NCBI RefSeq assembly: GCF_030936135.1
Contig: NC_082604.1
Location: 4,099,001 to 4,163,000, forward strand
Source of the DNA: Gavia stellata
Taxonomy: Eukaryota; Chordata; Aves; Gaviiformes; Gaviidae
Length of the DNA: 64,000 nt
Direction: 5' to 3'
Shown: positions 13,346 to 16,400 of the stretch, piece by piece
Position numbering within the stretch: position 1 is the first letter of the stretch
Layout of the letters: every line of letters begins with the position of its first letter
The notes under the pieces: model-generated
Told to the model about the DNA's origin: nothing
Databases searched by the model: none
Seen by the model: the letters and a program-made list of their open reading frames with translations, nothing else
Made by a program: the position numbers and the translations under genes

Positions 13346-13477
13346 TCACAATGGCATCTTATTGCCCTCAATGCTGATTTTCACTGCATGGGCCGATCTG
13401 CTTTTTTTCCTGATATCTGTGAATTTCCGCATCTGTTTGTCCAGTCGACTCACCCCTTTCTTAGAGGTCCCCTGGAA
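13346..13477 (-). CDS. IWS1: IWS1 terminal exon, distal form (14b, usual C-terminus)
   Basis: Acceptor TTTTTTAAG on the minus strand, 43 codons plus TGA in phase 0 with exon 13. It encodes the C-terminus known from other vertebrates: [27 protein letters not shown] and SIEGNKMPL. Confidence 0.95.
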
Positions 13478-16400
13478 CTTAAAAAATAAAACTAATAATT
13501 ACCACTGGAAAAAAGCAGTCGTCCCAGAGGTTCAAGAAAAGCAAGGCATGCAAGGTTAAACCTGCAAGAGGGAGCTGATGTAGCCATGGGTTCCCACCGG
13601 TTGTGTGCGTGTGTGTACACGCGTGCATGTATTCTCTCCCCACAGAGTGGATAAAATGGTTCCCCCGATATATGCATCGCATATATGGAGGCAGTCACGC
13701 TCACAAACATCACACAGAAAAGCTTTCACATTACAGGGATTAATAACTGTGTTAGTTGTTCACATGCCGGCTGAACGTACAGCTTGGAATAGTTCTCTAT
13801 CTATGCTGGCTGGAGTTTAGTGTCAGAAATATACTGCACTACAGTGTCACACATACAGGCTTCCTGCAGGGGGAAGATTTTTAGATACAAATACAGCATA
13901 ATTGAGGTTGATGGAGTCGACGTATCAATTCCAAACTGCGATTTATTTTAAACATCACTGATTAGTACTTATAAAGCAAGAGATTATTGGGAAAAAGGGG
14001 GTGTAGGGGGAAGCAAAAGAAATGCCTAAGCTGACCGTACAAGTTATTAGAAGAGTTAATTGCATTTCATCTCTGTATTTTAACTGCAAATGAAGAACTG
14101 AGATGACGCAGCAGTTACTTTGCAGAGATTAAATACAGTGATTCTGTAAAGAAATGCCACTGAAGACAAATGGGCAAGGACCTTCCAATCCATAGCCATT
14201 ACTTCCTAGAAAGCAATTTCCCCTAACTAGGCAACAGAAACAACAAATGATGGAAACTTCACACCTTTTAAGTTTGGGAGAAACACAGATATCCAGAACA
14301 CGCTACTTAGTACCTGACAAAAAACATCTATTAGAAACTGAACCTCTTGTTCCCATCACGAGGAAGGCGCTCCTGACATGCTGATTTTAAATAAACTTTA
14401 TTCATAAAACTGTTCACTATTCATTGGAATTATATCTGGAATTTCACAGTGAATTTTAAAAAAATATTTTTTTTTTAAACAAATAAATATGAAGCTTAAA
14501 CTCAACAGTTTTATCTACCATTTGTGCTAGCCTCTTCCTGTCGCTATTAGTTTGTGGCAGCCCTGCTCACAGAACCGAAATGCAGACTAGAAATTGTCAA
14601 AACAATTCCCGCACTGATGTATGTCATTAATAGATCTCTCTCCACCCCGCATTCACAGCGGGGCATTCTTTCCCCCCTGGTCTGCAGAGCTCTCATTCCC
14701 TGCCTCCTGTCAACCACCCCTGAAGTCTCACATCACTCAACTTCCTTGAAAGAGTAGGTGTGAAAAATACCTTACTTTGGACGAGTAAAACGTCAGCCAT
14801 AGATGTTGGTATACAATGACATGAGGTCCTACACTAAGGGCTAAGAATTCCTGTGTGTCGGTTCAGGTAAACCTGGAGAGGCTAGTTATGTCAGAACAGC
14901 ATTCAAACCCACAGGTGGTGCAAAGCCATTTTTGAGTACAGGTATTGTCACGTAACCTGTCATTTGGGTACCCTGAAGCTGTCGAGGCAGGTCTCACGGC
15001 AGATGTTACATGCTACAGCCTATATTTTCCTGTACAAGTTCCCTTTTAGGTCACAGTACAGACACGAGAGAATACGAGGAGAGTTTTCCAAGTTAAGGTG
15101 TACACACTCCTTTCCTGTATGTGCAAACTGCCAACAGCTGAAGCACATGCACTGTTCACACCTCCCTTGAGGGATACCTCTCAAACTTGGGGAAGGCAGA
15201 GTGTCATGGCTACAGGGGCATCCTGTTGCCTTCAATGCTGAACTTGATGGCCCGATGTACTTTGCTGAGTCGTTTCTGTTCAGCAAACCGTCTCTTGTGT
15301 TTTTCCAAGCGACTAATACCTCTCTTAATAGTCCCGGGCTAGAAACAATATCTCAATTAATGCACAGAAGGAGAGATAACAGCAGAAAGCACAGTCATTA
15401 TTACTTCCTCTATTTACATGTGTTCTACCATGTACTCCGCTTTTAAATTAAACCGTACAAGGTAGATGGATGAACCAAATAAAGCAAGGCAAAGGCCTCT
15501 ACTGAAGCTGTTAATGTTTACCAAATCCTCAAAGTTTTCCCAAACTAGAATATTATCAGAAGAACATGCTACAAAAACTGGGAGAGGTATAAAAATTTCA
15601 GTGACACACACTGAATTGCAGCGTTAGTTCAAAATGCTCTAAAATAAGAGGCCTGTAATCAGATTCTCACCCTAGAGAGAAACTCTAGAATAGTTAACGT
15701 GAAAATATCTTTTTGGTTAGAGAAGCAAGGATACCTGAGTGAAAGTATTTGATGAGCTTATAACAGCCCACTTGATAGCAGAACTTACTGTCTACTCAAA
15801 TTAGAAGAGGCACTTATAAGAACTACCGTATTGTACAGTAACCACGGCAGTAAGGTGACAGATTCCCAGGCTCAATTGGAGACAGCTTAGGTGCAGAGTC
15901 ACTAGGAGAGGCTAAGCTATCCCCACAGCGCAGTGCTTACCCTGGACGACTCCATCTCCACATTCCACTTTGGCCTGACCACATAGTCCTTGTTGGAGGG
16001 CATTGGCACCCTCGCACGGGCACAGAACCCGGGGTCCCCGGGTCTAAGAGCCCTGCAGAAAAAAAGATGTGACTGCTGGAGACAAATCTTATGCAGAAAA
16101 GAAGTATAAGCAATATGTCATGGTCTACCTCTGAAACACACTACGTAACTGTTGCCTCTAAAACCTCAAAACAAATTGCATATCATTAGTACCATCGAAA
16201 TACTTTTTTTTAATCAAAATTAAAAAAAAGAAAATCCAACCTACTTTTCCTCTCCAGTTAACACTTTCTCCAGGTCCCTGCGGGGAGTCTGACCACCAGA
16301 GCTGCAAGAAAAATAAAATTTTATAGACATCTATACACAGAGAAAGATAGTAAAAGACAGTCAAGTGTGGTAAAAGAAAAGAGAGAGGTTGTAACTCAAT

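What the first reader, a model, noticed from the sequence alone, without database searches (positions are those of the whole stretch)
13346..15338. IWS1 has two homologous, mutually exclusive terminal exons
Exon 13 can splice in phase 0 to either 15210-15338 (42 codons, TAG) or 13346-13477 (43 codons, TGA). With one gap the peptides share 21 of 42 positions: both ends are conserved (GT.K.G.SRL.K and A.K.SIEGN.MPL) and the middle is rewritten, with Lys/Arg content kept. The proximal exon has its own acceptor, and an AATAAA lies downstream before the distal exon. An intact frame, phase, splice site and stop after 50% divergence imply long-term purifying selection. The IWS1 C-terminus could therefore be switched by splicing coupled to polyadenylation, in a factor that itself links elongation to splicing. 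I do not know of a published description.
Basis: partly seen in the sequence, partly recalled or inferred. Interest (0 to 1): 0.85.

Follow-up and report, generated by a model that had tools for sequence, protein, structure and literature searches.

The report
Spare Pol II-gripping tail in bird IWS1
A bird gene for the transcription elongation factor IWS1 carries a second, old and diverged copy of its last coding exon, so splicing could swap exactly the piece of the protein that grips RNA polymerase II and the DNA in front of it.

Summary
The exon at 16052-15941 (minus strand) of bird IWS1 is followed by two homologous phase-0 terminal exons: 15338-15210 (42 codons, TAG) and 13477-13346 (43 codons, TGA). 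The distal exon is canonical, with 39 of 40 tail residues identical to human IWS1. The proximal exon matches 21 of 40 human residues without a gap, and the two exons gave the only matches (E up to 0.001) in a search of the 1.32-Gb genome. [quoted passage not shown] The proximal copy keeps a basic residue at all six DNA-facing positions and 15 of 24 modelled residues, but 1 of 9 linker residues. Synonymous sites between the copies are saturated while 30% of nonsynonymous sites differ. A neutral proximal copy reproduces this in at most 2.5% of simulations. Best reading: an old tandem exon duplication giving an alternative last exon that swaps IWS1's Pol II docking tail. Expression, conservation in other species and regulation could not be tested. 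The class is known (77 of 236 human duplicated-exon events are C-terminal). My searches found no description for IWS1.

The parts
15941..16052 (-).
   Evidence: identical to human IWS1 over ALRPGD..ESSR
15210..15338 (-). proximal (alternative) terminal coding exon, 42 codons + TAG
   Evidence: phmmer to human IWS1 780-819 E 5e-7
15285..15311 (-). proximal copy of the RPB1 jaw helix (human 787-795): RLEKHKRRF
   Evidence: numbering from PMC13175633
15258..15284 (-). proximal linker (human 796-804): AEQKRLSKV, 1 of 9 identical to distal
15213..15257 (-). proximal copy of the RPB1 cleft tail (human 805-819): [15 protein letters not shown]
   Evidence: PMC13175633
15339..15365 (-). proximal 3' splice site: weak pyrimidine tract (11 of 20 pyrimidines), TTAAT branch-point-like motif starting 22 nt upstream, ends tttctag
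14397..14402 (-). AATAAA about 0.8 kb after the proximal stop, likely proximal poly(A) signal
13942..13947 (-). second AATAAA before the distal exon
13346..13477 (-). distal (canonical) terminal coding exon, 43 codons + TGA; 39 of 40 tail residues identical to human
13421..13447 (-). distal RPB1 jaw helix (human 787-795): RLDKQMRKF
13349..13393 (-). distal RPB1 cleft tail (human 805-819): [15 protein letters not shown]
13472..13480 (-). tandem acceptors aag|ttccag of the distal exon, 6 nt apart (with or without residues FQ)
13091..13096 (-). AATAAA, distal poly(A) signal

Best explanation
The terminal coding exon of IWS1 was duplicated in tandem long ago in the ancestry of this bird, and both copies were kept. 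Joining exon 13 to the proximal exon and cleaving after the AATAAA at 14402 would give an IWS1 whose last 42 residues come from the diverged copy. Skipping it would give the canonical tail. The swapped piece is the RPB1 jaw helix plus RPB1 cleft tail, the part that fixes IWS1 to Pol II and to the downstream DNA. The alternative tail most likely still docks at the same place, because the contact pattern is kept, but with altered strength or control: a rewritten linker, one extra net positive charge and three fewer Ser/Thr. Shown: two intact homologous exons, no further match in the genome search, near-identity of the distal exon to the human tail, mapping to the published contacts, saturated synonymous against limited nonsynonymous divergence. 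Inferred: splicing of the proximal exon, its poly(A) site, protein expression and altered Pol II affinity.
For: Intact frame, phase, acceptor and stop. Gapless 40-residue alignment to human IWS1 780-819, E 5e-7. Only these 2 matches at E up to 0.001 in the own genome (3 candidates scored). Exon-13 sequence occurs in the window only as exon 13 itself, plus one chance-level 10-residue match (E 0.98), so this is a tandem exon copy, not a retrocopy. At DNA level only a 52-bp piece inside the exons aligns well (E 5e-5); the other alignments are 10-13 bp at E 1 or worse. pS 0.84, pN 0.30. Neutral proximal branch: best P 0.025; mean pN close to the observed value at omega 0.2-0.5. 6 of 6 DNA-facing basic positions are basic; 15 of 24 modelled residues identical against 1 of 9 linker residues, Fisher P 0.011. 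Contacts and functional need of human 786/787-819: PMC13175633 and PMC12368070. C-terminal swaps of duplicated exons are a known, enriched class (PMC9741552).
Against: No transcript, protein or second-species evidence for the proximal exon was available. The human IWS1 chains in the PDB carry only the distal type. The proximal acceptor has a weaker pyrimidine tract than the four other acceptors scored (11 of 20 against 13-15). The selection test rests on 40 codons and two sequences and does not exclude omega 0.7. The excess of third-position differences alone is weak (23 of 50, P 0.042). The Fisher test was chosen after seeing the alignment and leaves out residues 780-786 (4 of 7 identical to distal). 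The linker is rewritten and two jaw-helix residues change character (Q791H, M792K), which could abolish jaw binding.
Confidence: 0.75

Rival explanations
1. The proximal exon is a relic: a once-used duplicate that has recently lost its function or is only spliced as noise, still looking intact because it died recently.
For: Weaker acceptor (11 of 20 pyrimidines). The human chains in the PDB carry only the distal type. No RNA evidence.
Against: An unconstrained copy started from the distal exon rarely stays open with its stop: 8-22% of runs for 40-80 substitutions, and 0 to 0.05% with SIEGN.MPL kept as well (4000 runs per setting, indels not simulated). The conserved positions follow the contact map. 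Neither point excludes a very recent death.
Confidence: 0.15
2. The proximal exon works as an off switch: using it yields an IWS1 that cannot dock, or a poorly stable mRNA, lowering active IWS1; the protein tail itself is not selected for Pol II binding.
For: Human IWS1 lacking the tail fails to stimulate and hardly joins the complex (PMC13175633; PMC12368070). The middle of the peptide is rewritten (1 of 9).
Against: A mere off switch needs no SIEGN.MPL and no six basic contacts, which are kept. Any early poly(A) site would do the same.
Confidence: 0.08
3. The exon encodes a tail retuned for a different partner or situation at the same groove, for example a different outcome against another RPB1 jaw binder, rather than ordinary elongation. 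This overlaps with the best explanation, so the odds do not add up to 1.
For: Jaw-helix changes Q791H and M792K and net charge +10 against +9. The RPB1 jaw site is shared by UVSSA, RPAP2, XPB, ELOA and RECQL5 (PMC13175633).
Against: The cleft-tail core SIEGN.MPL and the basic contacts are unchanged, pointing to the same site and use.
Confidence: 0.15

Closest known systems
Tandem duplicated exon substitution events, C-terminal class (236 human events, 77 C-terminal; PMC9741552; abstract and section 6 read)
   Same: Two homologous exons side by side, each giving the end of the protein, with key functional residues kept and other positions changed; the abstract calls most such events ancient.
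   Different: The listing counts 0 occurrences of IWS1 in that paper (supplements not readable). Here the swapped piece is the Pol II docking tail of a general elongation factor, and expression is untested.
[quoted passage not shown] PDB 9MLC, 9EGX group)
   Same: The distal exon encodes it (39 of 40 residues) and the proximal exon encodes a gapless homologue (21 of 40) with all six DNA-facing basic positions basic.
   Different: The word 'isoform' has 0 occurrences in the main text of PMC13175633; the passages and sections of both papers that I read mention no second version of this tail.
U2AF1 tandem exons (PMC5224494, PMC6821156; search listing and start of abstract only)
   Same: An RNA-processing gene with duplicated homologous exons giving two isoforms.
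   Different: The exon pair (exons 3 and Ab) is described as alternatively spliced with both isoforms known; that it is internal rather than terminal is recalled.

Membership tests
Tandem duplicated exon substitution, C-terminal | Two adjacent exons with significant protein-level similarity | tested here: met
   tblastn E 8e-12, 51.2% over 41 aa; the only matches at E up to 0.001 in the own genome
Tandem duplicated exon substitution, C-terminal | Same phase and compatible splice sites so that either can follow the same upstream exon | tested here: met
   phase 0 junctions with exon 13, AG acceptors, in-frame stops
Tandem duplicated exon substitution, C-terminal | Key functional residues maintained in both versions | tested here: met
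   6 of 6 DNA-facing basic positions basic, SIEGN.MPL kept; which contacts matter is taken from the human structure
Tandem duplicated exon substitution, C-terminal | Both isoforms expressed, one replacing the other | not testable with these tools
   no RNA or proteomic data
IWS1 / Spn1 (gene identity) | Sequence match to IWS1 in the core region and C-terminal region | tested here: met
   ORF 20599-20898 matches human IWS1 511-574, E 4e-25; C-terminal 81 aa match human 739-819, E 4e-48
[quoted passage not shown]
   structure prediction jobs were not accepted; no complex modelling available

The most novel reading that the evidence does not exclude
An exon duplication older than birds (roughly 250 million years or more) gave a vertebrate lineage two interchangeable Pol II docking tails for a core elongation factor. 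Splicing coupled to polyadenylation would choose, by tissue or stage, between an IWS1 that grips the jaw and downstream DNA in the standard way and one with altered grip, thereby setting elongation speed and the contest with RECQL5 and other jaw binders genome-wide.
Probability: 0.35. Interest if true: 0.85.

Novelty: new member of a known kind. Interest (0 to 1): 0.62.

Why it matters
IWS1 is a general elongation factor, and in the human protein the last 34 residues are needed for it to join and stimulate Pol II. A natural, selected second version of that segment would be a ready-made separation-of-function variant. It would also show that the core elongation complex can differ between cell types or lineages through one splice choice, and it gives a simple test: swap the tail in the reconstituted complex.

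Tried and rejected
Retrocopy origin: rejected; exon-13 sequence occurs in the window only as exon 13 itself plus one chance-level match (E 0.98), and the homology starts within one codon of the splice junction.

Chance similarity: rejected.

Residual similarity of flanks to date the duplication: at DNA level only a 52-bp piece inside the exons aligns; the other alignments are 10-13 bp at E 1 or worse, so flanks only say 'old'. Dating uses (mean pN fits at 0.8-2 substitutions per site per branch; at omega 0.5 or less, 0.5 was the lowest branch length tried with P above 0.05) with a bird neutral rate of about 2e-9 per site per year that I recalled; very rough.

Relatives: the own genome was the only vertebrate sequence reached. 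Genome contigs gave no relative (80 pattern matches, 0 confirmed).

Literature (open-licence PMC full texts only). Searches with IWS1 whose hits were fully listed: 2; 5; 0; 5; 3; 3; 9 listed of 10 counted. Capped lists: searches (40 of 710; 15 of 95), where IWS1 papers could be unseen. (8 of 89,961) did not contain IWS1 as a term and is uninformative. No title or abstract start listed points to a duplicated or alternative terminal exon of IWS1. Passages on IWS1 were read in PMC13289920, PMC7019016, PMC9795356, PMC8533259 and PMC8596628: none concerns the IWS1 transcript's last exon. The other listed papers, apart from the two structure papers and PMC9741552, were seen as listings only.

Structure prediction of both tails: queue full five times, no result. 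The helix-propensity figures use scale values recalled from memory and differ little (linker 0.32 against 0.41, lower being more helical), so I do not lean on them. In the same call the list of simple R..S motifs printed blank because of a script slip and is not used. (bacterial-type promoter/terminator scan) is irrelevant to a bird gene.

Full report
What is there. On the minus strand of the window lies IWS1: an ORF at 20599-20898 matches human IWS1 511-574, and the last exons read EWSRPIFG.., SGGQTPRR.., [13 protein letters not shown]. After the exon at 16052-15941, with donor GTAAGC, two exons could end the protein. The proximal one, 15338-15210, codes [42 protein letters not shown] and stops with TAG. 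The distal one, 13477-13346, codes [43 protein letters not shown] and stops with TGA. The host is most likely a bird: the one cytochrome b match found in its 1.32-Gb assembly (13 candidates scored), a copy on contig C44, is closest to PDB entry 1BCC (351 bits; next best 299). That 1BCC is the chicken enzyme is recalled.

Which exon is canonical. Human IWS1 (PDB 9MLC chain i, 819 residues) ends with the distal type: 39 of 40 residues identical, preceded by the same FQ. The proximal exon aligns to human 780-819 without a gap (E 5e-7), 21 of 40 identical. A six-frame search of the own genome gives only these two places at E up to 0.001 (3 candidates scored). At DNA level only a 52-bp piece inside the exons aligns, and exon-13 sequence is not repeated beside the proximal exon. 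So it is an old tandem exon copy, not a retrocopy and not chance (0 of 200,000 peptide shuffles reached 21 identities, maximum 13).

What the exon encodes. Two structural studies place human residues 786/787-819 on Pol II: a helix at 787-795 on the RPB1 jaw and a tail at 805-819 in the RPB1 cleft beside the downstream DNA, with R787, K790, R793, K794, K809 and K816 near the DNA backbone (PMC13175633: passages and sections 36 and 38 read; PMC12368070: passages and sections 10 and 11 read). The helix 787-795 was docked from a prediction into the density; 805-819 was refined. IWS1 1-786 hardly joins the complex and does not stimulate elongation. A construct lacking the last 40 residues does not stimulate. 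The exon is thus this one docking module with 9 (proximal) or 10 (distal) residues in front. In the proximal copy the six listed positions are R, K, R, R, K, R. Of the 24 modelled residues 15 are identical to the distal exon; of the 9 unmodelled linker residues, 1 is (Fisher one-sided P 0.011). I set aside 780-786 (4 of 7 identical to distal), and the comparison was chosen after the alignment was seen. The cleft tail is reported to be lacking in yeast Spn1 (PMC13175633).

Selection and age. Between the two exons, over 40 codons, differences by codon position are 14, 13 and 23 (P 0.042 for the third-position excess). Nei-Gojobori pS is 0.84 (saturated) and pN 0.30. Of 19 codons with the same amino acid (Met set aside), 12 differ. 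I simulated the two branches with the distal one strictly conserved and the proximal one evolving at a given omega with stops disallowed (600 runs per setting). With omega 1 the chance of so high a pS together with so low a pN is at most 0.025 (at 0.5 substitutions per site per branch), with omega 0.7 at most 0.06, with omega 0.5 at most 0.16. Mean pN matches the observed value at omega 0.2-0.5 with 0.8-2 substitutions per site per branch. In a separate simulation, an unconstrained copy with 40 to 80 substitutions stays open with its stop in 8-22% of runs and also keeps SIEGN.MPL in 0 to 0.05% (4000 runs per setting). Constraint on the proximal exon is therefore likely but rests on little sequence. 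With a recalled bird neutral rate near 2e-9 per site per year, 0.5-0.8 per branch means roughly 250-400 million years, which would predate birds; this is a rough inference.

How it would work. Two AATAAA (14402, 13947) follow the proximal stop before the distal exon, and one (13096) follows the distal stop. The proximal acceptor has a weak pyrimidine tract (11 of 20, against 13-15 for the four other acceptors scored; the two overlapping distal acceptors both score 14) with a TTAAT motif 22 nt upstream, as one may expect for a regulated or minor exon. Choice of the proximal exon with cleavage after 14402 would end IWS1 with the alternative tail. Because the contacts are kept while the linker is rewritten (T796A, S804V and others; Ser/Thr/Tyr 4 against 7, net charge +10 against +9), I expect the same docking site with different strength or control. 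Since RECQL5 competes with IWS1 and ELOA, UVSSA, RPAP2 and XPB bind overlapping jaw sites, a change there could matter widely. The AKT sites S720 and T721 reported for IWS1 (PMC8533259, passages) lie upstream of the swap. All of this paragraph beyond the sequence features and the cited facts is inference.

Known or new. C-terminal swaps of tandem duplicated exons are an established class: 77 of 236 human events (PMC9741552, abstract and section 6). The listing counts 0 occurrences of IWS1 in that paper. My IWS1 searches of open-licence PMC papers (the lists of 17 and 36 capped) show no title or abstract start that describes a duplicated IWS1 tail. Subscription papers, supplements and genome annotation databases were out of reach, so an annotated isoform may exist. 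I therefore rate it a new member of a known kind, made unusually interesting by what is swapped.

Verdict. Observation confirmed.

Noticed in passing
window 13472-13480 (minus strand): Distal exon has tandem acceptors 6 nt apart (aag|ttccag|ggg), which would add or drop residues FQ; human IWS1 includes FQ.
   Followed up: partly
window 23145-23900 (minus strand), repeat 23413-23564: An IWS1 acidic exon (23145-23900) holds a 39-bp tandem repeat (3.9 copies, 93% matches) coding [17 protein letters not shown] units; possible length variation between individuals or species.
   Followed up: no
window 9483-10076 (plus strand): Serine protease exon of the vitamin-K-dependent clotting factor type (best PDB matches factor Xa, 168 bits, and factor IX; protein C 148 bits; 60 of 88 matches shown) next to IWS1. 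A PROC neighbour is expected from human synteny (recalled), yet factors X and IX score higher than protein C.
   Followed up: partly
L003:1501-2043 (G000 contig C44): A mitochondrial-type cytochrome b copy, open in the vertebrate mitochondrial code, inside an 89-Mb contig: a nuclear mitochondrial insert or an assembly artefact.
   Followed up: partly
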